From NCBI RefSeq assembly GCF_041380365.1, contig NZ_CP159981.1, forward strand, positions 992,001 through 1,056,000: a stretch of DNA of 64,000 nt. The letters run 5' to 3'. Below are positions 12,105 to 62,392 of this stretch, piece after piece. Position numbers and translations under genes: made by a program. The notes beneath the pieces were generated by a model, which was not told where the DNA came from, ran no database searches, and saw nothing but the letters and a program-made list of their open reading frames with translations. Positions within the stretch are counted from its first letter, which is position 1. Every line of letters begins with the position of its first letter. Source of the stretch: Buchananella sp. 14KM1171 (GTDB lineage: Bacteria; Actinomycetota; Actinomycetes; Actinomycetales; Actinomycetaceae).

Positions 12105-12211
12105 AAGCTCGCAAATGCTGCAACCGGGTACATCCGACCGCTTCGTGCCACGCCCCCAAGCGGTCACACGTACCCCAACCACACACTCGTACGCTCGGTG
12201 CCACCCCAAGC
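12105..12211. repeat. 107-bp intergenic hairpin repeat, copy A
   Basis: Runs from AAGCTCGCAAATGCTGCAAC to CGCTCGGTGCCACCCCAAGC. Its core is a hairpin (12126-12175): GGGTAC pairs with GTACCC, then GACCGCTT with AAGCGGTC across a small internal loop. Two almost identical copies lie at 13598 and 13760, and diverged copies at 42504, 50975 and 51172. It contains no convincing ORF. Confidence 0.85.
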
Positions 12212-12349: not shown

Positions 12350-13408
12350 ATGTCCTCCAGAAACCCTTGGGATGAGATCGCCTCCCACCTGCACGTCAGT
12401 TCACGATCAATCCGACGCCGTTCACTCCCGAACGGGGCCGCGCAGTTGCGGCTCGGCTGCTGGCTGTCCCTGCCCAGCGACTTTGCCGACCGCTCCCGCA
12501 TCCAACGCCGCTTGTTCTCTCACCGCGCGCGGCTCCTGTCGTTCGCACGCCAGCACGCCGACGCTCACTTCACCCTCCATTCCGCCCTGGCATTGCACGC
12601 TATCCCGACGTGGCGCGCGTGCCCGGAGGTGAACATTCGGCGCCAACACAGTTTCTGTAGCCACCCATTCAACGCGCTCACCGACCCCTTGATTCAGCTA
12701 GCCGAATGCCGCACCCGGATCGAGCGCACCTCCTCGTTGTTGGAGCCGCTGACGCTCGCTGCCCCCTTCCCAGCCACCGCCCGCGTGGATTCCTTGGAGG
12801 ACACAGCGATAATCTGCGCTGCCCGGCTCCACCCGCTGGAGGGGTTCGTTGCGGTTTGCGCGATCCTGCGGCGCCTTTGCTCCTTCGACCGCTTCGCCCT
12901 CGAAGAATCGCGCCAACGCGAGGAGGCCGCCCGAGCGCGCCTTTTGAGCCTGTTGGCTGAGAAGCCGCTGCGCAATTTTGCCCGCGCCCACGCGATTATT
13001 TCGTTGGCCGACGCTGCCGCCGAGTCAGTTGGAGAACGTGCGCTCCTGTGGGCCCTCCTGACCGTTTCTCCCGTCCGCCCGGAGACTCAGTGCCGCTGGG
13101 AATTGGAGGGGAGCGTCTACTTCACGGACTTCTTCCTTGCCGGAGAGCGCACCGTGTTGGAATTCGACGGCGCGACCAAGATGGGTGACAACGACATTGA
13201 CTTCGCCAACTCCCGCCGCGAGCAGATGGAGCGCCAGTTGCGGCTGGAGCGTGCCGGGCTGAGGGTGCTGCGCTACCAGTGGAGAGACTTTGACTCCTTT
13301 GACCACCTGCGGGCACTGCTTTGTCAACATCTCTCGATAGGGTCCACTCGCTTGCCCTCCGAGCATCGCCGCCTTTGGGTTCCGGAGCCGCCAAGGTCGT
13401 TTTCGTAG
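12350..13408 (+). CDS. DUF559-type endonuclease-like protein
   Basis: 352 aa. The C-terminal 110 residues match the DUF559 / Vsr-like PD-(D/E)XK pattern: 'FLAGERTVLEFDGATKMG' then 'RREQMERQLRLERAGLRVLRYQWRDF', where the E-F-D and the later R-W/D region would form the nuclease core. The N-terminal two thirds ('HADAHFTLHSALALHAIPTWR') resemble the AbiEi/transcriptional-regulator-like halves common in actinobacterial DUF559 proteins. The start is uncertain: the ATG at 12350 has no good ribosome-binding site. It is flanked by hairpin repeat A upstream and B and C downstream. A one-mismatch dispersed motif lies at 13009. Biological role unknown. Confidence 0.75.
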   Translation: MSSRNPWDEIASHLHVSSRSIRRRSLPNGAAQLRLGCWLSLPSDFADRSRIQRRLFSHRARLLSFARQHADAHFTLHSALALHAIPTWRACPEVNIRRQHSFCSHPFNALTDPLIQLAECRTRIERTSSLLEPLTLAAPFPATARVDSLEDTAIICAARLHPLEGFVAVCAILRRLCSFDRFALEESRQREEAARARLLSLLAEKPLRNFARAHAIISLADAAAESVGERALLWALLTVSPVRPETQCRWELEGSVYFTDFFLAGERTVLEFDGATKMGDNDIDFANSRREQMERQLRLERAGLRVLRYQWRDFDSFDHLRALLCQHLSIGSTRLPSEHRRLWVPEPPRSFS

Positions 13409-13597: not shown

Positions 13598-13704
13598 AAG
13601 CTCGCAAATGCTGCAACCGGGTACATCCGACCGCTTCGTGCCACGCCCCCGAGCGGTCACACGTACCCCAACCACACACTCGTACGCTCGGTGCCACCCC
13701 AAGC
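13598..13704. repeat. 107-bp intergenic hairpin repeat, copy B
   Basis: Nearly identical to copy A. In the stem (13619-13668) the closing A-T pair of the inner helix becomes G-T (GAGCGGTC for AAGCGGTC), which still pairs. It lies in the 604-bp gap after the DUF559 gene. The rest of that gap (13409-13597, 13867-13982) is C-rich low-complexity DNA with no gene I can support. Confidence 0.85.
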
Positions 13705-13759
13705 ACCGCGCCCAGGCCCGCCCGCCCATCGCCCGAGCCAGACCCCCCTGCCCGTCCCC

Positions 13760-13866
13760 AAGCTCGCAAATGCTGCAACCGGGTACATCCGACCGCTTCG
13801 TGCCACGCCCCCGAGCGGTCACACGTACCCCAACCACACACTCGTACGCTCGGTACCACCCCAAGC
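13760..13866. repeat. 107-bp intergenic hairpin repeat, copy C
   Basis: Same orientation as copy B, 162 bp downstream of it, with the hairpin at 13781-13830. One base differs in the 3' flank (CGGTACCACC instead of CGGTGCCACC). Confidence 0.85.
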
Positions 13867-39600: not shown

Positions 39601-42416
39601 ACGACGTGTGGGCTTACGTCCAGATCGGCGAGAACGCCGCTCCTGGCGTCCGCCCGGTCAAGCTGTCCGTCTCCGGCGCCGGCGTCACTGCGGGCAAGTA
39701 CCAGGAGAAGGTTGGCGAGGTTCCCACCACCAGCCTGTCCCAGACCACGGCCCTGAACGCCACCGCGTCTGACCAGAAGTTCCGCTACTACTACCAGCGC
39801 GCTCGCGTCATCTTCAAGACCGACGGTTCCGCCCCGGTGACCTTCAAGGTTGAGGCCGGCGACGGCGCGACCCCGGTTTACGTGGACGACCTGCGTATCG
39901 TGAAGTTCACCGAGCCGAACGACAAGGCCCCGACGGACAAGACCATCCTGTTCGAGGACTTCGAGCACACCGACACCGGTTACTGGCCGTTCGTCACCGG
40001 TCCCGCCCAGGGCGGCGACGCGCGCACCCAGCTGTCTCGCCTGAACGCCCCCTTCACCCAGAAGGGCTGGAACCCGGGCAACTACGGCGCTAACGGCAAG
40101 CTGGTGGACGACGTTCTGGACGGCGAGTGGTCCCTGAAGCTCCACGAGGAGAACCAGGGCCTAGTCCTGAAGACCACGCAGCAGTCCATGCCGTTCAAGG
40201 CGGGCAAGCGCTACCGCGTGTCCTTCGACTACCAGAACGGTATTGCCCCGTACTACAAGTTCGTGGTCGGTTACGACTCCGCCCGCCAGGGCGCTCGCCC
40301 GAACCAGACCATCCTGGACCAGGTTGCCCTGCCGGTGAAGCAGACCACTACCACCTTCTCCCACGAGTTCGTGGCCGGTGGCTGTGGCGCCTACTTCGTG
40401 GGTATCGACTCCCTGGGTGGTGCTCCGCTGCAGTCTGACCTGATCATCGACAACCTGCGTGTCGAGGAGCTGGGCAACGCCACCGAGGTGCCGCCGTGCG
40501 CCGCTGCGGACATCCGTCTGCCGCAGGGCACCGTCTCCCTGGTTGGTGGCGAGACCGGCAAGGTCTACACCGCGATCACCAACAACGAGTCTGTGGCGAT
40601 CACCAACATCAAGCACACCCTGACGGCCCCCGAGGGCTGGACGGTTGCTGCTACCGGTTCCTCCACCTACCCGGTCGAGGTTGCCTCCCTGGCTCCGGGC
40701 GAGACCGCCTACGCCGAGTGGAACGTGACCCCGCCGGCCGCCCCGACGGACACCAAGCTGGCCGCCCGTATCGCCTACACCGGCCCGCACGGCGCCACCG
40801 CCGCTACGGCGGAGCGCGCCATGGTGGTGCTGCGCGGCCTGCAGGACGGCAAGAACTGGCTGTCTGACCTGCCGTTCCTGAACGAGATCAACGGCTGGGG
40901 CCCGATCGAGCGCGACCAGGCCAACGGTGAGAACCAGGCCGGCGACGGTCGTCCGCTGAAGATCGGTACCGACCAGACCTTCGCCAAGGGTCTGGGTACC
41001 CACGCCCGCTCCTCCGTGGAGTTCGACCTGGCCGGTCGCTGCACCTCCTTCACCGCGAAGGTCGGTGTGGCCGACTACCAGCAGGCCAAGGGTTCCGTTG
41101 TGTTCGAGGTTTGGGGCGATGGCCGCAAGCTGGCCAACACGGGCCTGCTGACCCGCAGCCTGACCCACAACTTCAACGTGGACATCACCAACGTCAAGCG
41201 TCTGAAGCTGGTGGTCACCGACGGTGGCAACGGTATCGGTAACGACCACGCCAACTGGGGTGAGGCCGCTGTCACCTGTGGCACTGCCCCGTCTCAGGAG
41301 CCGTCGCAGACCCCGTCGCAGACCCCGTCGCAGACCCCGTCGCAGACCCCGTCGCAGACCCCGTCTCAGCAGCCGACCGAGCAGCCGACCGAGCAGCCGA
41401 CCCAGCAGCCGACCCAGCAGCCGACCCAGCAGCCGACCGAGCAGCCGACCCAGCAGCCGACCCAGCAGCCGACCCAGCAGCCGACCCAGCAGCCGACCGA
41501 GCAGCCGTCCGGCCCGGTGGTGGACCGCATCCAGGGCCCGTCCCGCGTGGACACCGCCCTGGCCGTGGCTGCGGACCCGGCGTTCGGCAAGCGCTTCGCG
41601 GTGCTGGCTAACTCGGCCTCCTTCGCCGACGCTCTGTCTGCCGCTCCGCTGGCTGACACCCTGGACGCGCCGGTCCTGCTGACCAACGGCAAGGTGCTCG
41701 AGCCTCGCGTGCTGTCCGCCCTCAAGGCGCGCGGCGTGCAGGAGGTCTACCTAGCTGGTGGCGTCCAGGCCGTCTCCGCTGATGTGGAGAAGGCTCTGCG
41801 TGGCGCGGGCATCTCCGTCCACCGCGTTGCCGGTACGGACCGCTACGCCACGGCTGCCGCGCTCGCTCGCGCCGCCCTGGCGATGAACCCCGACCTGACG
41901 CGTGTCCTGGTTGCCGACGGCAACGACTTCGCTGACGCCGTCTCCGCTTCCGGTGTTTCCGGTCGCGCAAACGCGGTCGTGGTCCTCTCCTCCGGCAACA
42001 AGATCCCTGCGGCCACGAAGAGCTTCCTGGACGGTGCTCAGATGGGTCGTGCGGTGAGCGCGGTCGGTGGCAAGTCCGCTGCGGCGCTGAGGTCCCTGGG
42101 CTTCGTTGAGGGCATCACCTTCAACAGCTACGTCGGTGCTGACCGCTACGAGACCTCCGACGTGGTTGCGACGGGCCTGGGTTCCGGCGCCAAGAACGTT
42201 GTTCTGGCCACCGGCGCGCTGTTCCCCGACTCCCTGGTCGGTGGTGCGCTGGCCAACGAGCGCGACGGCGTGGTGCTGTTGGTGCGTAAGACTCAGGTGC
42301 CGGCTGGTGCCGCCGAGTTCCTGCGCGCGAACAAGCCGACCCGCGTCACCCTGCTGGGTGGCACGGCGTCGATCGCCGAGTCCGTCAAGGCCGAGGTTGA
42401 GCGACTGATCAAGTAA
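36603..42416 (+). CDS. secreted endo-alpha-N-acetylgalactosaminidase (GH101) with cell-wall-binding repeats
   Basis: 1937 aa, secreted enzyme predicted to release Gal-beta-1,3-GalNAc (core-1) from mucin-type O-glycoproteins. Signal peptide residues 1-30, cut after 'APAALA'. About 60-215: F5/8-type carbohydrate-binding domain ('AVDGDNDTYWHTKW'). About 560-810: GH101 catalytic barrel with likely nucleophile Asp685 ('LYIDVFYDFG') and acid/base Glu711 ('VGSEWSD'). About 1305-1400: NEW3-type domain. 1419-1560: NPCBM ('GTHARSSVEFDL'). 1564-1637: tandem QTPS/QQPT linker. 1638-1937: three cell-wall-binding repeats type 2 ('RVAGTDRYATAAALAR'), which attach the protein non-covalently in place of an LPXTG anchor. 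AGGGAG lies 6 nt before the ATG at 36603. Confidence 0.95.
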   Translation: MPQRSRARLIAGSAAVALIASAMLAPAALADEGVGEVTPSAAEVVPDAYTYTRVPHTQLTAVSADSEELTGEGANGAKEKAVDGDNDTYWHTKWANVNPVPAPPHEIVIKVGEAGGIQNIGKIDVVPRQSSNASGRTHEWQLFYSVSDDIQNSANWEEIASGAWAEDHPNRLQTKSIILPRLITATHFKFVAKSSWGGKEGSTENVTSMGEFIPYTATGDPEPEPSSSATTPGTPEGPGTLPAVPAGVKVIEDSKLKVELDPTLPYVRNYTDKASTQQMRGKIGNAPVTVRLNNGSSTVTATVGAPVATATSVRYPLTFTGGTMDVVYTLADGVVTMTLENVAASTGSPKITSVEMPTLDLVSAVAAQDGAALALARLDVNRDNTGRTDEFIAINGSARLYEQRGSTYAFANTGGVAAALETNAIVDDKREDGTTHVSHMDLNRWYSSVRAAEGARFGTIRAGSFTVESQFAEDGLATHSKLTPKTKAEWAPFVKVAFAADQNNDTKVDWQDSAIRYRDIDIEARGSEKVATTVITRIPFNIVSQATHPFLKTLDDTKRVALATDFLGQQAMLKGYQAEGHDAAHPDYGGNYNFRAGGLEDINKLAAEAEKFNTSIGVHVNVTEQYPEARNFADTPYHMNSRGWNWMNQSWYINGRVDLGSGKVLKRFQQFRDEAHRNLDWLYIDVFYDFGWKADRLARELNAQGWRVGSEWSDKFERISIWSHWANDEKYGGKANKGINSQIIRFIDNSNKDNFNPHPLLGYSQVKDFEGWTGKVDWNVFYSNIWENNLPVKFLQLSPIMKWDDAAGRITFKNGTVASGASGLTGNFNSGSGTTFTYDGAEVLRGTKYLLPWTDNGTAQGAKRLYHFNPEGGSTTWTLTDAWKTQTSLKLYKLTDQGRVEVRDLPVSATKTVTIEAEANQPYVIYPSTSLPTPVAPEWGKHSMIKDPGFNSNALTDYETTGNVSVAKNDRAQYVAKLGEGASSLAQKLNNNQALPAGTYDVWAYVQIGENAAPGVRPVKLSVSGAGVTAGKYQEKVGEVPTTSLSQTTALNATASDQKFRYYYQRARVIFKTDGSAPVTFKVEAGDGATPVYVDDLRIVKFTEPNDKAPTDKTILFEDFEHTDTGYWPFVTGPAQGGDARTQLSRLNAPFTQKGWNPGNYGANGKLVDDVLDGEWSLKLHEENQGLVLKTTQQSMPFKAGKRYRVSFDYQNGIAPYYKFVVGYDSARQGARPNQTILDQVALPVKQTTTTFSHEFVAGGCGAYFVGIDSLGGAPLQSDLIIDNLRVEELGNATEVPPCAAADIRLPQGTVSLVGGETGKVYTAITNNESVAITNIKHTLTAPEGWTVAATGSSTYPVEVASLAPGETAYAEWNVTPPAAPTDTKLAARIAYTGPHGATAATAERAMVVLRGLQDGKNWLSDLPFLNEINGWGPIERDQANGENQAGDGRPLKIGTDQTFAKGLGTHARSSVEFDLAGRCTSFTAKVGVADYQQAKGSVVFEVWGDGRKLANTGLLTRSLTHNFNVDITNVKRLKLVVTDGGNGIGNDHANWGEAAVTCGTAPSQEPSQTPSQTPSQTPSQTPSQTPSQQPTEQPTEQPTQQPTQQPTQQPTEQPTQQPTQQPTQQPTQQPTEQPSGPVVDRIQGPSRVDTALAVAADPAFGKRFAVLANSASFADALSAAPLADTLDAPVLLTNGKVLEPRVLSALKARGVQEVYLAGGVQAVSADVEKALRGAGISVHRVAGTDRYATAAALARAALAMNPDLTRVLVADGNDFADAVSASGVSGRANAVVVLSSGNKIPAATKSFLDGAQMGRAVSAVGGKSAAALRSLGFVEGITFNSYVGADRYETSDVVATGLGSGAKNVVLATGALFPDSLVGGALANERDGVVLLVRKTQVPAGAAEFLRANKPTRVTLLGGTASIAESVKAEVERLIK

Positions 42417-42475: not shown

Positions 42476-42503
42476 TGTCTCCCACGCGCCCACCGCCCCC
42501 ACC

Positions 42504-42596
42504 CTCGCAAATGTGACAACGGGGTACATCCGACCGCTTGGTGCCACGGCACCGGTCGGTCGCATGTACCCCAACCGCACACTTGTACGCTCGGGG
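42504..42596. repeat. intergenic hairpin repeat, copy D
   Basis: Diverged copy of the 107-bp family, starting CTCGCAAATGTGACAAC. The hairpin (42521-42572) is fully formed: GGGGTACAT/ATGTACCCC, CGACCG/CGGTCG and an inner GGTGCC/GGCACC. The inner stem differs from that of the other copies yet still pairs. The region after it to 42770 holds no gene. Confidence 0.8.
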
Positions 42597-50974: not shown

Positions 50975-51123
50975 CACCCGCATCGGCGATGCACCGTGGC
51001 ACCGAGCGCACAAGAGTGAGCTCGGGGTACAAACGACCGACCGGGGGCACACCCCCAAGCGGTCGCACGTACCCCAACCGCACAACCGTACGATCGGGGG
51101 CACAAACCCCACCCCAACACCAA
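50975..51123. repeat. intergenic hairpin repeat, copy E (149-bp tandem unit 1)
   Basis: Begins CACCCGCATCGGCGATGCAC. The hairpin (51024-51075) has GGGGTAC/GTACCCC, CGACCG/CGGTCG and an inner GGGGG/CCCCC with loop CACA. The flanks carry a direct repeat, CGCACAA..GT..G.TCGGGG, on both sides of the hairpin. Same family as copies A-D by stem sequence and flank. Confidence 0.8.
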
Positions 51124-51171: not shown

Positions 51172-51320
51172 CACCCGCATCGGCGATGCACCGTGGCACC
51201 GAGCGCACAAGAGCGAGCTCGGGGTACAAACGACCGACCGGGGGCACACCCCCAAGCGGTCGCACGTACCCCAACCACACAACCGTACGATCGGGGGCAC
51301 AAACCCCACCCCAACACCAC
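51172..51320. repeat. intergenic hairpin repeat, copy F (149-bp tandem unit 2)
   Basis: Direct copy of unit E, 197 bp downstream, with only two differences seen (AGTGAG to AGCGAG; CCGCAC to CCACAC). The hairpin is at 51221-51272. The remainder of the 788-bp gap to 51670 has no supported gene. Confidence 0.8.
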
Positions 51321-56233: not shown

Positions 56234-56260
56234 CCCCGGCAGGAACACTGCCGGGGTTTT
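56234..56260 (+). terminator. intrinsic terminator of tRNA-Gly
   Basis: CCCCGGCAG-GAACA-CTGCCGGGG followed by TTTT. Confidence 0.92.
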
Positions 56261-56378
56261 GCCTTATGTGCGCCCCGGGCAGTCGAGTGGGCCCACGCTG
56301 ACGCGCAGCGGCAGTGGGGATCCCGCCGCCCGCATCCCCCGCCGAATCCCAGCAATCCGACCCGGGCCCTCCTCGAAG

Positions 56379-56477
56379 CTCGACATCCCGCTACTCAACT
56401 CGACGTTCGCCTCCTCAACTCGGCGTTCGCCTCCTCAACTCGGCGTTCGCCTCGTCAACTCGACGTTCGCCACCTCA
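56379..56477. repeat. 20-bp-period array 1 (direct units, cut by an IS)
   Basis: Five units with core CTCGACGTTCG or a variant start at 56379, 56399, 56419, 56439 and 56459, exactly 20 bp apart, with spacers like CCTCCTCAA. The array is broken at 56477 by the IS1249-like element and resumes in phase at 60346 once the IS and one copy of the 8-bp target duplication are removed. Confidence 0.85.
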
Positions 56478-57261
56478 GGGTTAATGCTCAAAAAGTGTGT
56501 ATGAAGTGGGGACTTTTCCGTACTGGCCGTAGGTAAAAGTCGGGGTGCACAAGCTCTGAGAGCATGTGCGGTGTCTGGTGTTAGCAATCGTCCTCGTTGT
56601 GGTGTATGCGATCGCAAGTGCGTGAAGAACGGTCGGTCCAAGACCGGCAAGATGCGTTGGCGCTGCCTGGGCTGTAACGCCTCGCTGAGCGTCAAGCGTG
56701 TGGACAAGACGGCCTTGATGGAATTCGGCCTCTTCCTGCAGTGGGTATGGGGCAAGCAAGACGCCCGCAGCCTGGCTGCCGCCAGGGGCTGGTCTCTAGC
56801 CACATTTCGCCGTCGTTTGGCATGGTGCTGGCAGGTTGAAGTACTACCTCCCAAGCCCACCGGGCAGGTCCATGACTACCTGCAAATCGATGGCACGTAC
56901 TTCAATTCCTGGTGCTTGTTAATCGCTTTCGATGGCACACAAGTGGTGTCCTGGCAATGGTGCGAGCGAGAAAACGCACCAGCCTACCGCCAGCTCTTAT
57001 CCAACCTGCCCCAACCCGACCTGGTCATTCTCGACGGGGCTAACGCCGCCGCGCGTGCTGTTAAAGACCTATGGCCCCAGGCCAAGACCCAGCGTTGTCT
57101 CTTCCACCTACAAGCCACCATCACCAAGCACCTAACCCGCCAGCCCCGCCTAGAAGCAGGCCGTGAAATCAAGGCCCTTTCCCAAGGACTAAGCCGGGTA
57201 GAAAGCCAAGACCAAGCCCGTGCCTGGATGCAGCAATACCAAGCCTGGGAGACCAAATGGC

Positions 57262-58561
57262 TGAACCGTCCTGGGTTTGGTTCCGGTGGTCAGCCTGAAA
57301 GGATTGACCTATGCCGAAGCGTTTCTCCCCAGAGTTCAAGTCGCGTGCTGTTCGTCTTGTCAGCGACCGTCTGGCATCGGAGCAGACAGTCTCTCTCACC
57401 AGTGTTCTACGTGAGGAAGAGCGTCAATCTCGGGGTGGGGTATGAGACGATGCGCCGCTGGTATCGCGATCCCAGCCTGAGACAGGATCTTGAACATGCC
57501 CCATCAAGGAGTGCGAGGTGGCCCGCCTGCGGCGGGAAAACGCTCAGCTCCGCCAGGTCAACGAGATCCTGAAGGCAGCCTCGGCTTTTTTCGCCAAAGA
57601 ACTCGACCCCCGGTACCCGAAATGATCGCTTTCATCGACGCGGGCCGAGCCAAGTGCCGGGGTTGAACGCATCTGCAAGACTCTCACCGAACACCGCCAA
57701 GGCGCCTTCATCACGGGTGCGAGGGTATGGCAAGGCCAAGAACCGTACGCCCTGGCAGCGCTGCTTACGAGATGCCGCTTTGATCCCAGTCATCAAGCTC
57801 ATCCAGGCAGAGAACACTTACGTGTACGGGTGGCTAGATGTGGCATGCCCTCAAACGCGAAGGCTAGGACGTGGGGCGCGAACAATACTGGCCCCAGCTG
57901 GCGAGGGAGATTTGCCGGGCTCAGGGGCGTTGTGTCTGCCCCGGGTAGGCGCCAAGCTGGAGTGCTCCTGGGACCGATTACGCGCCCAGATCTGGTTGAA
58001 CCCCCGCTTCGCGCGCAGTGCCCCTAACCAGTTGTGGGTGGCCGACATTACATACGTTCGCACCCGCAGCGGGTTCGTTTACACCGCCTTCGTAACAGAT
58101 GCCTTCAGCCGCAAGATCGCTGGCTGGGCAGTGAGTAACACACTCAATGCCCAGGCTCTACCCCTGCAGGCCCTGGAACGAGCTATCGCTACTGCCAAGG
58201 GCAGTGTCGAGGGATTGGTCCACCACAGCGATCACGGCAGCCAGTACGTCTGTGTCGCCTACCATGAACGCCTGGTCGAAGCAGGAATTGATGCCTCTAC
58301 CGGCACCGAAGGAGAATACTTGCGACAACGCACTGGCCGAAACTGTCAACGGCTTGTACAAGAGCGAGTTGATCTACTCCCAGCACTGGGCCGGACTGAC
58401 CGAAGTCGAATGGGCGACCCTATGCTGGGTGAACTGGTGGAACAACACCCGCCTGCACAGCGAACTGGGCTATGTCACACCCCAAGAAACCGAAGACCGC
58501 TACTACCAACACCACACCCACCAAATGAGCACCGCCTAGGAACCAAACCCAGGACGGTTCA
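57262..58561 (+). mobile_element. IS3-family element 1 (degenerate)
   Basis: A 1300-bp element with perfect 23-bp inverted repeats beginning TGAACCGTCCTGGGTTTGG (57262-57284; 58539-58561) and a 4-bp target duplication TGGC (57258-57261, 58562-58565). It is inserted in the codon for Trp of the outer transposase ('ETKW'). Confidence 0.92.
57311..58540 (+). pseudogene. IS3 element 1 transposase orfA/orfB remnants
   Basis: orfA opens at 57311 ('MPKRFSPEFKSRAVRLVSD'), shifts frame near 57420 ('VGYETMRRWYRD') and again near 57505 ('ARLRRENAQLRQVNEILKAA'). orfB is scattered over several frames with an internal stop. Recognisable parts are 'VADITYVRTRSGFVYTAFV' (first Asp), 'HHSDHGSQYV' (second Asp) and, one frame away, 'DNALAETVNGLYKSELIY' (Glu). 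Transposition by this copy is not possible. Confidence 0.88.
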
Positions 58562-58963
58562 TGGCACGACTTCCTAGCCCAACGCACCTACGCGCGCGAT
58601 AAGACCACCAACCGCCCCGCCTGGGCCAAAGCCAACCAGACCTGGTGGTACACCCACCCTCGCCTGCGACGAGTACGCGGCTTGTTCAGGCATCTAATCA
58701 AGACCAGCCAACTGTTTACCTACCTAGAGTTCTGCCCTCCCAGACCCCGCACGACTTCACCGTTGGAAGGAGGGATCAACAAAGCCATCAAAGACCTTCA
58801 ACGCCAACACCGAGGACACAGTCCTCAACACGCCCAACGCGCCGTGGAGTGGTTCCTCACCACCCAAACAGTCTCGCCCTACCGGCCCTCAACAAGCCAA
58901 ATCCTCCAAGCGAAAACCCGGGCCTCAAAACCCGCGATCCCGGGTCTGGTGCAAGTTTTGGTG

Positions 58964-59821
58964 TCAGTTTGTGTAGATTGTTTCGTATTCGATTGGGGTG
59001 AGTTTGCCTAGGCGGGCTTGGCGGCGTCGGCGGTGGTAGGTGGATTCGATCCAGTGGCGGATGGCGGTGGCTAGTTCCTGACGGGTTTCCCACTTGCGGG
59101 TATTGAGCACGTTCTTCTGTAAAAGCGCGAAGAAGGACTCCATGGCAGCGTTGTCCGCACATGTACCGGCCTGTCCCATGGACTGGACCAGCCCGTAGGC
59201 GAGGGCAGCTTGCCGGTAGGCCGTGGAAGTGAACTGCGCACCACGATCTGAATGGATTACACACCCGGCTGGTGGGTGGCGGTCTGCTACCGCCTGGGCC
59301 AAAGCGTTAACCGCGAGAGAAGCGCTCATGGACGTAGCACTGCTAAGAGCCACGATCCGGTTAGACCACACGTCCTTGATCGCACACACATACAACTTGC
59401 CCTGAGTGGTGGGATGTTCGGTGATGTCAGTAAGCCAGAGACGGTTAGGCCCATCGGCATGAAAGACCCGCCCAACCAGATCAACCCCAACGCTTCTAGC
59501 GCTCTTGGTGGTCTTGGTCTTGCCTTTGGGTGCAGTAATAGACCTAATGCCCAACTCGTGACAGATCGACCACACCGTGCGGCTAGCCACCTTGACTCCC
59601 TGGCGGGCCAGCTCATCGGTAATCAGCCGGTAGCCAAAAGCAGGATCAGCACTATGGATGGCCCTCACCCGTTCCTTTAAGTAGCTACGGCGTTGTTCTA
59701 GCCGGCTTTGCCTACACCCGCGCCACCGGTAGAAAGGCTGGCGGGCGATACCAAGCACCCGGCAGATCCGACTAACCGCTATGCCCAAACCAGCTAGTTC
59801 TTCTACCAGGGGGTAGATCAT
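58964..59821 (-). CDS. IS3-family transposase OrfB (integrase-core)
   Basis: 285 aa, complete. HTH_21-like start 'LVEELAGLGIAVSRICRVLGIARQPFYRWR' (in pieces), then the rve integrase core with DDE residues in 'LWLTDITEH', 'CVIHSDRGAQFTS' and 'DNAAMESFFALLQK'. The ATG overlaps the orfA stop (ATGA). OrfB would act as an OrfAB fusion by -1 frameshift or by re-initiation; no A6G-type slippery string is obvious at the overlap (CCCAAAATGA). Confidence 0.93.
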   Translation of the reverse strand: MIYPLVEELAGLGIAVSRICRVLGIARQPFYRWRGCRQSRLEQRRSYLKERVRAIHSADPAFGYRLITDELARQGVKVASRTVWSICHELGIRSITAPKGKTKTTKSARSVGVDLVGRVFHADGPNRLWLTDITEHPTTQGKLYVCAIKDVWSNRIVALSSATSMSASLAVNALAQAVADRHPPAGCVIHSDRGAQFTSTAYRQAALAYGLVQSMGQAGTCADNAAMESFFALLQKNVLNTRKWETRQELATAIRHWIESTYHRRRRQARLGKLTPIEYETIYTN

Positions 59822-60108
59822 TTTGGGTTCACATCACGGGCCAGGTAAGCCGCCGCCCTTCTAAGGATGAAGCACTCTTCTTCCTTTAACCGCAACTGGC
59901 GCTCTAACTGCGCGATGCGGGCCTTGTCCTCACCCGCACTAGCCTTGAGCACACCCTTAGAAACCTGCTCGCGTCTGATCCAAGCATCCAGAGTCGAACC
60001 CCCAATCCCAAAATCAGCTGCTACCTGCGCCAACGTCATCCCAGCAGGACGATTCAACGCAAAACGCACCACATCCTGACGGAATTCCGGCGCATACTTC
60101 CTGGGCAT
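59818..60108 (-). CDS. IS3-family transposase OrfA
   Basis: 96 aa. Helix-turn-helix DNA-binding protein 'KYAPEFRQDVVRFALNRPAGMTLAQVAADFGIGGSTLDAWIRR' (in pieces), followed by the leucine-zipper part 'KARIAQLERQLRLKEEECFILRRAAAYLA' (in pieces). The ATG at 60108 is chosen by family length; the frame stays open upstream to 60156 without similarity. Confidence 0.92.
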   Translation of the reverse strand: MPRKYAPEFRQDVVRFALNRPAGMTLAQVAADFGIGGSTLDAWIRREQVSKGVLKASAGEDKARIAQLERQLRLKEEECFILRRAAAYLARDVNPK

Positions 60109-60169
60109 CACAGCCCCTTCCCGCGAGACCAACAGCCCCGCAACCAGTGACACCAACCATTACACCATT

Positions 60170-60192
60170 CCCCCCCCCCCCCCCCCCCCCCC
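60170..60192. repeat. homopolymer of 23 C
   Basis: An uninterrupted run of 23 cytosines, starting 2 bp outside the right end of IS3 element 2. A tract of this length is either a slippage hot spot or an assembly artefact. Confidence 0.8.
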
Positions 60193-60345
60193 GCCCACAA
60201 GCACCTAAAAACGCCCTTGTACGACACCGCCTTCAGCCCCGAAGACGGCAACCACACACGCAAAGGCTGGGCAGGAAGAACCACCTGAACACCCCAAGAC
60301 ACGCCCGAGATTTACACACTTTTTGAGCATTAACCCCCACCTCAA

Positions 60346-60614
60346 CTCGACGTTCGCCACCGAGTTAACGTCTAGATTCGACCCCAAACGTCTAGCTGAA
60401 GACCCAAACGTCGAGATTGGATACCAAGCCCCCACAGCGTGGCCTCACGCCCGAGTAGCTTCAGTCCGACATCCCCGCGCTCAACTCGACATTCCGCTAC
60501 TCAACTCGACGTTCGCCCCCTCAACTCGACGTTCGCCCCCTCAACTCGACGTTCGCCACCGAGTTAACGTCTAGATTCGACCCCAAACGTCTAGCTGAAG
60601 ACCCAAACGTCGAG
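60346..60614. repeat. 20-bp-period array 2 (direct then inverted units, twice)
   Basis: The first half has a direct unit CTCGACGTTCG at 60346 (the continuation of array 1), then inverted units ending AACGTCTAG or AACGTCGAG at 60365, 60385 and 60405. The second half has direct units at 60485, 60505, 60525 and 60545, then inverted units at 60564, 60584 and 60604. All steps within a block are exactly 20 bp. A 79-bp block is identical at 60340-60418 and 60539-60617. The array ends 23 bp before the RluA-like start codon. Confidence 0.88.
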
Positions 60615-60639
60615 ATTCGCTCCCCCACGATCTGCCAGC

Positions 60640-61887
60640 ATGGTCGTCATGAGCCCCGCTTCCCCTCCAGACCCCGCGCCGCCCAGTGCGCCCGAGGGAA
60701 AGACCGCGCAAGCCACACCCTCGCCCTTCCCCACACCCTCGCCCTTCCCCACACCCTCGCCCCTCCCCACACCCTCGCCCCTCCCCACACCCTCGCCCCT
60801 CCCCACACCCTCGCCACTCTCCACACCCGCTCATCCCCGGCGCCGCCCCCAGCCGCTGCCGGCCCGGGACGGCCTGCGCCCGTCCCGCCTGGGCAAGCGG
60901 TTGGGCGTGAGTCAGGCCCGGGCACTGACCTGCACGCTGGGCGAGTGGGTCGGCGCGAACATCCCGCGCCTGGAGCCGCGCCAGGTTGAGCGTGCCTTCG
61001 CGGCCGGGGACGTGGTGGACGCGTGGGGGCATCCCCTGCCGTGGGACACGCCGGCCACGGCCTTGGAGCGCCCGGTCTACCTCTACCGGCCGCTGCCTGA
61101 CGAAACCGCTCTGCCGCCTATCCCCGTTGTTCATCGGGGCGACGGCTGGCTGGTGGTGGACAAGCCGAAGGGTCTGGCCACCATGCCGCGCGGGGCTTAC
61201 GTGGCCCGCTCGGTGACGGTGGCGTTGCGCCGCCAGGAGAACAACGCGGACCTCACGCCCGCCCACCGCCTGGATCGCGGCACCTCCGGCCTGCTGTTGT
61301 TCACCGCGCGCCCGGATTTGCGCCGCGCCTACCAGGAGCTCTTTGCGCAGCAGCACGTGCGCAAGACCTATATTGCCGCCGCTCCTGCCCCGCCTTCTTC
61401 GTGGCCGACGTTGCCGCCCGCCTCCCCCTCCAGCCCGCGCCCCTGCGTCCGGCCTGAGCGGGTGGCAGGCTGGTGCAGCCCGCAAGTGGCGGTTACCGTG
61501 ACCGCCGATGGCTGGCTGCGCTTGGAGAGCCGGCTGGCAAAGACGGGCATCCGGGTCACCTCCACTGCGGGACGGCTGCCGAGCAACGCGGTCACCTTCC
61601 TGCGCCCGACCGCCGAGGCTGTCACGGTGCGCGGGCTGCGCTTTCCGCTCTACGAGGTGCGCCCGGCCACCGGCAAGACCCACCAGATTCGTGTTCATTT
61701 CGCGGCCCTGGGCTTGCCTTTGGTAGGGGATTCGCTCTACGGCGGTTTCGACGCTGCGCCCTACGGGGCGGCCGAGGCCCCGGGCACGGCCACCTCTCTT
61801 CAGCTTCACGCCGCCGGTTTGGAGTTCACTGACCCGCAAACTGGCCAGGAGGTTGCGCTCTGGCTCCGTGACAAGGTCGTTGTGTAG
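60640..61887 (+). CDS. RluA-family pseudouridine synthase with Pro-rich N-terminus
   Basis: 415 aa. Isomerises uridine in rRNA or tRNA. The core has 'VVDKPKGLATMPRG', the catalytic Asp in 'PAHRLDRGTSGLLLF', and 'ATGKTHQIRVHFAALGLPLVGDSLYGG' (in pieces). An S4-like domain at about 95-150 ('LGVSQARALTCTLGEWVG') is degenerate. Residues about 28-63 are six 18-bp DNA repeats (60721-60828) encoding SP(F/L)PTP. An insertion 'PAPPSSWPTLPPASPSSPRP' is read through an exact dispersed motif (61406) in a frame different from other genes. Start ATG 60640 or 60649; no Shine-Dalgarno. Confidence 0.88.
   Translation: MVVMSPASPPDPAPPSAPEGKTAQATPSPFPTPSPFPTPSPLPTPSPLPTPSPLPTPSPLSTPAHPRRRPQPLPARDGLRPSRLGKRLGVSQARALTCTLGEWVGANIPRLEPRQVERAFAAGDVVDAWGHPLPWDTPATALERPVYLYRPLPDETALPPIPVVHRGDGWLVVDKPKGLATMPRGAYVARSVTVALRRQENNADLTPAHRLDRGTSGLLLFTARPDLRRAYQELFAQQHVRKTYIAAAPAPPSSWPTLPPASPSSPRPCVRPERVAGWCSPQVAVTVTADGWLRLESRLAKTGIRVTSTAGRLPSNAVTFLRPTAEAVTVRGLRFPLYEVRPATGKTHQIRVHFAALGLPLVGDSLYGGFDAAPYGAAEAPGTATSLQLHAAGLEFTDPQTGQEVALWLRDKVVV
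61406..61418 (+). repeat. dispersed motif CGACGTTGCCGCC, exact copy
   Basis: Context GTGGCCGACGTTGCCGCCCGCC, in the insertion of the RluA-family gene. Here it is read as W-P-T-L-P-P, not D-V-A-A. Confidence 0.65.
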
Positions 61888-61994
61888 GTCCTGAGAGTTT
61901 GGCGGGCGACATAATTCACCTAACGCCAAGTCTTGTCACCCCTTACAGCCCGCACCACCTCAACCGACTACAGCACCACACACTGGGGGTGAAT

Positions 61995-62104
61995 CTCGAC
62001 GTTTGACTGGTCGACTCGACGTTTGGGGATGAATCTCGACGTTTTGAGGGGTCCAAACGTCGAGTTTGGGTAACAAACGTCGAGCTGACCAGGCAAACGT
62101 CGAG
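61995..62104. repeat. 20-bp-period array 3 (three direct, three inverted units)
   Basis: CTCGACGTTTG-type cores start at 61995, 62015 and 62035; CAAACGTCGAG cores start at 62054, 62074 and 62094. The two innermost cores form a dyad spanning 30 bp. The first direct and last inverted spacers are also partly complementary (CTGGTC/GACCAG). It lies 107 bp after the RluA-like gene. Confidence 0.88.
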
Positions 62105-62317
62105 CGGAGAATCCAACCTGGCTTGCGCCACTTTAGTGTCCTAGGAGGGTGAGTAGCTCTTGGGCGTGGGACATCAGGACTGCCCCCCAAATCACCACCA
62201 TTTGCACGAATCAGGTCAGGCATGAGGAAGCGCGCAGCGTGGGGTGCGTCCCGATATCTCGCCTAGTCCTGCGCTGCCTTCCCACCGCCTTGCCTCACCT
62301 GCCTTGCTAAACCGGTC

Positions 62318-62392
62318 GACCTAGACCTTGTGCAGCCGACCTAGACCTTAGAGCGCTACGCAAGGTCTAGGTGGAGTGCATAAGGTCTAGGC
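62318..62392. repeat. 20-bp-period array 4 with a different core
   Basis: Two direct copies of CGACCTAGACCTT at 62318 and 62338, then two inverted copies AAGGTCTAGG at 62362 and 62382. The geometry is the same as arrays 1-3 (20-bp step, convergent, about 32-bp central dyad) but the core sequence differs. It abuts the truncated end of an IS remnant. The stretch 62110-62317 shows nothing else. Confidence 0.8.

What the first reader, a model, noticed from the sequence alone, without database searches (positions are those of the whole stretch)
56379..62392. Convergent arrays of repeats with an exact 20-bp period, at four places, with two different cores
Seen in sequence: blocks of direct units (core CTCGACGTTCG or CTCGACGTTTG) face blocks of inverted units (CAAACGTCGAG or TTAACGTCTAG). 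Within a block, steps are exactly 20 bp: 56379, 56399, 56419, 56439, 56459, then 60346 after IS removal; 60365/85/405; 60485-60545 then 60564/84/604; 61995/62015/62035 then 62054/74/94. A fourth array (62318-62392) has the same geometry with an unrelated core, CCTAGACCTT. The central dyad is always 30-32 bp. Twenty base pairs is about two helical turns, so all cores lie on one face of the helix, which fits a multimerising DNA-binding protein. That the core changes while the architecture stays suggests a system with several specificities. I do not recognise a described element with this layout; candidates are transposon-end binding arrays, iteron-like or partition sites, or a selfish repeat.
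Basis: partly seen in the sequence, partly recalled or inferred. Interest (0 to 1): 0.82.

Follow-up and report, generated by a model that had tools for sequence, protein, structure and literature searches.

The report
Nuclease genes with matching repeat arrays
The odd facing repeats are one member of a widespread bacterial system that appears to be undescribed: a gene for a DNA-cutting enzyme sits beside or between matching repeat arrays, each enzyme has its own repeat 'word', and copies of the arrays have scattered through the chromosome like tiny selfish elements.

Summary
Arrays of 9-bp cores with an exact 20-bp step converge on a 30-bp dyad. The chromosome holds about 255 such steps against 8 in the backward control; 400 kb each of two relatives holds none. 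The 'unrelated' fourth core is near-homologous (CTAGACCTT vs CTAGACGTT), and three further core families share the layout.

The key finding is a trans factor. The chromosome encodes exactly four paralogous Vsr-fold endonucleases. Each lies beside arrays with its own core: A next to dnaE, B on both sides of its gene, D, and E, which flanks window 12350-13408 on both sides. Across Actinomycetales, 26 of 82 homologous loci carry convergent arrays, only at period 19 or 20. Controls gave 0/195 windows (relatives) and 2/100 (same genomes; both are dispersed copies of a core used there by a nuclease). In 22 loci arrays flank both sides, usually with one core. Cores and period follow the nuclease tree. 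The array-nuclease-array cassette at ispF-cysS is missing from two sister species. Inverted cores do not covary, so this is not an RNA hairpin.

Best reading: selfish nuclease-array cassettes, working like RAYT/REP or homing systems but with a different enzyme and different repeats. Binding and cleavage are untested. Type C arrays remain without a nuclease.

The parts
12350..13408 (+). Vsr-fold endonuclease of the array family (nuclease E), 352 aa, next to dnaK
   Evidence: AlphaFold model residues 224-331 match Vsr 1cw0 (Z 12.2) and I-Bth0305I 3r3p (Z 12.0); E229, D260, E271, D273, K277 nearly invariant in about 75 homologs
12107..12200 (.). Type E array, 5' side of nuclease E (19-bp step GTACA..., 30-bp inner dyad GACCGCT/AGCGGTC)
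13600..13855 (.). Two type E arrays (162-bp duplication), 3' side of nuclease E
42503..42596 (.). Dispersed type E array
51006..51099 (.). Dispersed type E array
51203..51296 (.). Dispersed type E array
56379..56477 (+). Type A array 1, forward arm, interrupted by an IS; core CTCGACGTT, 20-bp step
56478..60336 (.). Nested IS insertion (Mutator/MULE-type transposase carrying IS3-like insertions) inside array 1; target duplication CCACCTCA at 56470-56477 and 60337-60344
60346..60415 (.). Type A array 1, last forward unit, 12-bp centre and inverted arm
60485..60614 (.). Type A array 2 (4 forward + 3 inverted units)
61995..62104 (.). Type A array 3 (3 + 3 units), 3' of a pseudouridine synthase gene
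62321..62390 (.). Type B array (2 + 2 units, core CTAGACCTT); its nuclease is at genome 1410884

Best explanation
These are the repeat half of a family of selfish 'nuclease-array' cassettes. A Vsr-fold (PD-(D/E)XK/EDxHD-like) endonuclease recognises a short core repeated every 19 or 20 bp (about two helical turns), in two arms facing each other across a roughly 30-bp dyad. Several nuclease molecules can therefore stack on one face of the DNA and meet at the centre. The gene sits beside, often between, two such arrays with its own core. Cutting at or near an array, followed by recombinational repair, lets arrays or whole array-gene-array cassettes be copied into other intergenic places. Solo arrays are non-autonomous copies that persist 3' of genes, where they do little harm. 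Paralogs and orthologs have changed their core while keeping the geometry. Shown: geometry, association, core specificity per nuclease, dispersal, presence/absence at ispF-cysS, fold, conserved catalytic residues. Inferred: binding, cleavage, the recombination route, selfishness.
For: Only four genes of this family were found in the genome, and each is adjacent to arrays of a different core. Across the order, 26/82 homologous loci carry convergent arrays, only at period 19 (17) or 20 (9), against 0/195 windows of two relatives (Fisher p 7e-16) and 2/100 windows of the same genomes (p 2e-8); those two are GGATAGG-type copies, a core of nucleases in those genomes. In 22 loci arrays lie on both sides, usually with the same core. 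Cores and periods follow the nuclease tree. Orthologous dnaE- and dnaK-linked nucleases in the sister species Buchananella hordeovulneris have different cores but the same period, 20 and 19. The B cassette is absent from ispF-cysS in two sisters. Fold: Vsr Z 12.2, homing endonuclease I-Bth0305I Z 12.0. Inverted cores and spacers do not covary.
Against: Neither binding nor cleavage has been tested. About half of the homologous loci (41/83) show no array by these detectors. Type C arrays (about 20 elements) have no detected nuclease. Arrays at rrn operons and 3' of genes could have been retained for a host function. The N-terminal 220 residues have no confident fold match, and 90-145 is low confidence. 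The period-on-tree test is modest (7 changes, 10.6 expected, P 0.009). All loci come from one order, so they are not independent.
Confidence: 0.7

Rival explanations
1. The nuclease-fold protein works mainly as an autoregulator or roadblock: arrays are operators that control its own gene and act as transcription or replication roadblocks at 3' ends of genes, including the three rrn operons.
For: Arrays lie just outside the nuclease gene on one or both sides. Of 23 array loci with genes called on both sides, only one lies between divergent genes. The largest arrays follow all three 5S rRNA genes.
Against: Catalytic residues are almost invariant. A terminator-like hairpin with a T run (56236-56262) already separates tRNA-Gly from array 1 (sequence). 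Dispersal is strong in this species and little seen in sisters, which fits copying better than an essential site. The cassette is present or absent at a conserved junction.
Confidence: 0.2
2. RNA-level elements: paired arrays form hairpins that act as bidirectional terminators or stabilise mRNA, as proposed for some REP sequences.
For: Inverted cores can pair; arrays lie 3' of genes; type B and C elements are near-palindromic.
Against: Innermost cores are fully complementary in only 13/49 elements. Variable positions 3, 8 and 9 pair no more than re-paired controls, and spacers pair less (4.5 vs 5.5 of 11). Exact 20-bp steps are not needed by RNA. No such model explains the nuclease association.
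Confidence: 0.05
3. Passive MITE-like repeats mobilised by a DDE transposase; the IS inside array 1 or the ISL3 inside the rrn array is the driver.
For: IS elements sit inside arrays; REPs in other bacteria are reported IS targets (PMC1525189, listed).
Against: Each IS has its own terminal repeats and an 8-bp target duplication and simply interrupts the array. I saw no target duplications or conserved outer ends on type A arrays. IS genes are not what the arrays share across species; the nuclease is.
Confidence: 0.04

Closest known systems
RAYT / REP (BIME) system of gammaproteobacteria (PMC2817692)
   Same: A nuclease/transposase gene flanked on both sides by intergenic repeats that are also scattered genome-wide; several paralogs with different repeat classes; repeat and protein phylogenies agree.
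   Different: RAYT is an HUH Y1 transposase and REPs are single hairpins with a GTAG head. Here the enzyme has a Vsr/PD-(D/E)XK fold and the repeats are 19/20-bp-stepped direct units in two facing arms with no hairpin covariation.
EDxHD (Vsr-like) homing endonucleases, I-Bth0305I
   Same: Catalytic domain fold (Z 12.0); dimerises on a very long target of nearly 60 bp (PMC3943268); fits selfish spread by cleavage and repair.
   Different: No intron, intein or interrupted target; the gene is flanked by complete arrays; recognition is apparently by iterated units; many dispersed solo arrays.
Vsr mismatch endonuclease / DUF559 (PF04480) / REase_MTES_1575 (PF18741)
   Same: Same nuclease fold; sub-threshold Pfam matches to both families.
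   Different: Extra ~220-residue N-terminal region; linked to repeat arrays, which I found reported for neither family.
Iterons, parS/KorB-like or phage stoperator arrays (from own knowledge)
   Same: Helically phased direct repeats with a cognate protein.
   Different: No Rep or Par gene seen; two facing arms; the partner is a nuclease; chromosomal and intergenic.

Membership tests
RAYT/REP | Gene flanked by repeats that are also dispersed in the genome | tested here: met
RAYT/REP | Associated protein is an HUH Y1 (IS200/IS605-like) transposase | tested here: not met
   Fold is Vsr-like nuclease, Z 12.2; Pfam matches are DUF559/MTES_1575. Absence of a Y1 transposase elsewhere in the genome was not tested
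RAYT/REP | Repeat is a palindromic hairpin whose stem covaries | tested here: not met
   (type A)
EDxHD / Vsr-like homing endonuclease | Vsr-like catalytic domain with conserved acidic residues | tested here: met
EDxHD / Vsr-like homing endonuclease | Gene inside an intron/intein or free-standing, absent from the cognate site in some relatives | tested here: inconclusive
   Cassette absent at ispF-cysS in two sisters, but the gene is flanked by whole arrays rather than interrupting one
EDxHD / Vsr-like homing endonuclease | Cleaves its target and drives gene conversion | not testable with these tools
   Needs biochemistry or genetics
DUF559 / MTES_1575 | Match above the curated Pfam cut-off | tested here: not met
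   Best 18.1 vs 20.6 bits and 28.3 vs 38.2 bits; same fold, so a divergent relative
Plasmid iteron / partition site | Linked replication or partition gene | tested here: inconclusive
   None among the neighbouring proteins scanned, but not all neighbours were scanned

The most novel reading that the evidence does not exclude
A new class of mobile genetic system in Actinomycetales: a Vsr-fold nuclease that assembles cooperatively on two facing, helically phased arrays of its own core, copies those arrays and its gene between intergenic sites, and repeatedly re-evolves its core while keeping a 19/20-bp step. It would give a function to a set of uncharacterised DUF559-like actinobacterial nucleases.
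Probability: 0.6. Interest if true: 0.92.

Novelty: categorically new. Interest (0 to 1): 0.86.

Why it matters
It links an uncharacterised nuclease family to a readable DNA target, so each protein's probable recognition sequence can be read from its own flanks. It gives many natural protein-core pairs for working out how a nuclease changes specificity, offers a Gram-positive counterpart to RAYT/REP built on different chemistry, and explains large intergenic arrays, including those after every rRNA operon of this species. The central question, whether the nuclease binds and cuts its array, can be tested directly.

Tried and rejected
The genome contigs and viral-contig scans with the type A pattern gave nothing; the window's own genome may be masked there. 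The G019 hit (L051) was judged a chance match; the G128 four-unit CTGGACGTT array (L050) lies by serine recombinases and was not pursued. Hairpin/terminator idea rejected by the covariation test; the apparent covariation came from mixing types A and B. Rfam finds only a TPP riboswitch and a tRNA in the window. PADLOC and NCBIfam give no confident family. No solved structure is related by sequence; the fold search needed the model. Alignment A2 was too diverse for the search for related loci. Literature: no paper found linking DUF559, MTES_1575 or Vsr to repeat arrays, or printing the core in a relevant context; most subscription journals are not held. A type C nuclease was searched for with A1 and PF04480 and not found. 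A first gene call set the window nuclease start at 12446; homology favours ATG 12350. An AbiEi-like N-terminal domain was suspected from memory; Pfam gave no support, so it is not claimed.

Full report
WHAT WAS CHECKED. The window lies at 992001-1056000 of a closed 2,364,007-bp chromosome, called G000 here. A same-genus homologous locus in G001 is 100% identical to a Buchananella hordeovulneris MAG, apart from an N run. So G000 is, by the tool's genus grouping, a Buchananella species (Actinomycetaceae). Exact-core pairs always have a 20-bp step although 18-24 was allowed. 255 steps are found at up to 2 mismatches against 8 for the backward control, and no array with this core in 150 family genomes. 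A core-free scan for convergent repeats lights up essentially only period 20 in G000 DNA. It gives no period-20 hit in 407 kb of a second same-genus genome (G002) and 400 kb of another genus.

ANATOMY. A type A element is typically 3 forward and 3 inverted units (arms of 2 to 10). The core is CT(C/A)GACG(TT/AA), with 11-bp spacers and a GC-rich 12-bp centre, so the central dyad is 30 bp (29 bp in rrn-type elements). Elements are intergenic. Of 23 array loci with called genes on both sides, 7 lie between convergent genes, 15 between tandem genes and 1 between divergent genes (own count). The largest clusters directly follow the 5S gene of all three rrn operons. Two IS elements have landed inside arrays with 8-bp duplications.

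MORE FAMILIES. The fourth array of the finding (type B, CTAGACCTT) is one base from the CTAGACGTT variant of type A; type B has about a dozen copies in G000 and one in G001. The generic detector then found type C (CTTGTCC/A, about 20 elements) and type D (TGAGGGGTT), both with the 20-bp step and 30-bp dyad. It also led to type E (19-bp step, GTACA..GACCG), several copies of which are in this very window. So the same architecture carries at least five cores in one genome.

HAIRPIN OR PROTEIN SITE. If arms paired as RNA or cruciform, facing cores should covary. They do not. Among 49 unique type A elements the innermost cores are fully complementary in 13. Variable positions 3, 8 and 9 match no better than re-paired controls, and spacers match worse (4.5 vs 5.5 of 11). 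Together with strict phasing this favours recognition of double-stranded DNA by a protein.

THE PARTNER. All-against-all comparison of predicted proteins picked out one paralogous family whose members sit beside arrays. A profile search finds exactly four members in G000. One at 463174, next to dnaE, has three type A elements. One at 1410884 has type B arrays on both sides. One at 1620505 has a type D array upstream. One at 1004449 (window 12350-13408, next to dnaK) has type E arrays on both sides. Homologs in G001 and G002 are flanked by arrays with other cores. The dnaE-linked orthologs have CTCGACGTT in G000 and GGCGACAAG in G001, both at 20 bp. The dnaK-linked orthologs (51% identical) have GTACA..GACCG and TTGGCGTTGGG, both at 19 bp. 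Specificity has therefore changed at orthologous loci while the step was kept.

GENERALITY. Of 180 family genomes, 90 have strong homologs, and more occur across the order. In 82 homologous loci of about 4 kb, convergent repeats (at most 3 of 27 mismatches) occur at period 19 in 17 and at period 20 in 9, and at no other period from 15 to 25. Control windows give none at 19/20 in 195 (Fisher p 7e-16). With a looser test it is 38/82 against 1/195 (p 1e-22). In 100 windows taken from the same genomes there were two hits (p 2e-8), and both are GGATAGG-type arrays, a core of nucleases in those genomes. In 22 loci arrays flank both sides, usually with the same core. Counting arrays outside the gene, 42 of 83 loci are positive, 28 at period 19 and 14 at period 20. 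On a tree of 40 nucleases, neighbours share cores, and the period changes 7 times against 10.6 in shuffles (P 0.009). Genomes with several paralogs tend to carry a different core for each. These loci share ancestry, so the p-values overstate independence.

MOBILITY. In G000 the ispF-cysS junction is 1.7 kb and holds half a type C array followed by B array, nuclease, B array. In G001 the same junction is about 220 bp with what looks like a solo array. In G002 it is about 75 bp with nothing. The cassette is thus gained or lost as a unit; which of the two happened is not shown.

THE PROTEIN. The model of the window nuclease (mean pLDDT 70.6, shallow alignment of 5) has a confident C-terminal domain. 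It matches E. coli Vsr (Z 12.2, 2.1 A over 101 residues) and the catalytic domain of homing endonuclease I-Bth0305I (Z 12.0). E229, Q247, D260, E271, D273 and K277 are almost invariant in about 75 homologs, so catalysis is probably intact. The N-terminal part is presumably the DNA-reading part; its fold is not established here.

HOW IT PROBABLY WORKS. Shown: geometry, one core per nuclease, flanking, dispersal, presence/absence, fold and catalytic residues. Inferred: subunits bind successive cores on one face, meet at the dyad, and cut; repair copies arrays or cassettes to other intergenic sites. This resembles RAYT/REP, where the gene is always flanked by two REPs and the phylogenies agree (PMC2817692), and EDxHD homing endonucleases, which act on targets of nearly 60 bp (PMC3943268). 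It belongs to neither by the tested features. A regulatory or roadblock role remains the main rival.

NOVELTY. No held paper links this nuclease family to such arrays; subscription journals are mostly absent, so prior description cannot be excluded. Type C arrays, with no nuclease found, are unexplained.

Noticed in passing
L014, L027, L032 (G000 rrn operons): The largest type A clusters follow the 5S gene of all three rRNA operons and share units, as if homogenised; one is split by an ISL3 element with target duplication CGAAAACC.
   Followed up: partly
G000 type C arrays (e.g. L011 4265, L024 5332, L110 2334): About 20 CTTGTCC arrays with a near-perfect central palindrome but no detectable nuclease of this family; similar AACTTGGCC arrays in G001 (L091 6626, 8943).
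   Followed up: partly
L155-L157 (Curtobacterium): DUF559-like genes of three Curtobacterium strains each have a long palindrome (GCACAAC(A/G)..GAACC) shortly downstream; possibly the local equivalent of the arrays.
   Followed up: no
L050 (G128) about 2878-2955: Four direct units of a CTGGACGTT-like core at 20-bp steps with no inverted arm, near two serine recombinase genes.
   Followed up: no
window 60168-60193: Run of about 23 C beside the end of an IS3-like element; a phase-variable tract or an assembly artefact.
   Followed up: no
window 56478-60336: Nested insertion: a Mutator/MULE-type IS carrying IS3-like insertions, one with a disrupted frame.
   Followed up: partly
window 60713-60828: Six 18-bp tandem repeats inside the 5' part of the pseudouridine synthase reading frame.
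   Followed up: no
window 41287-41507: 12-bp tandem repeats inside a 1945-codon reading frame.
   Followed up: no
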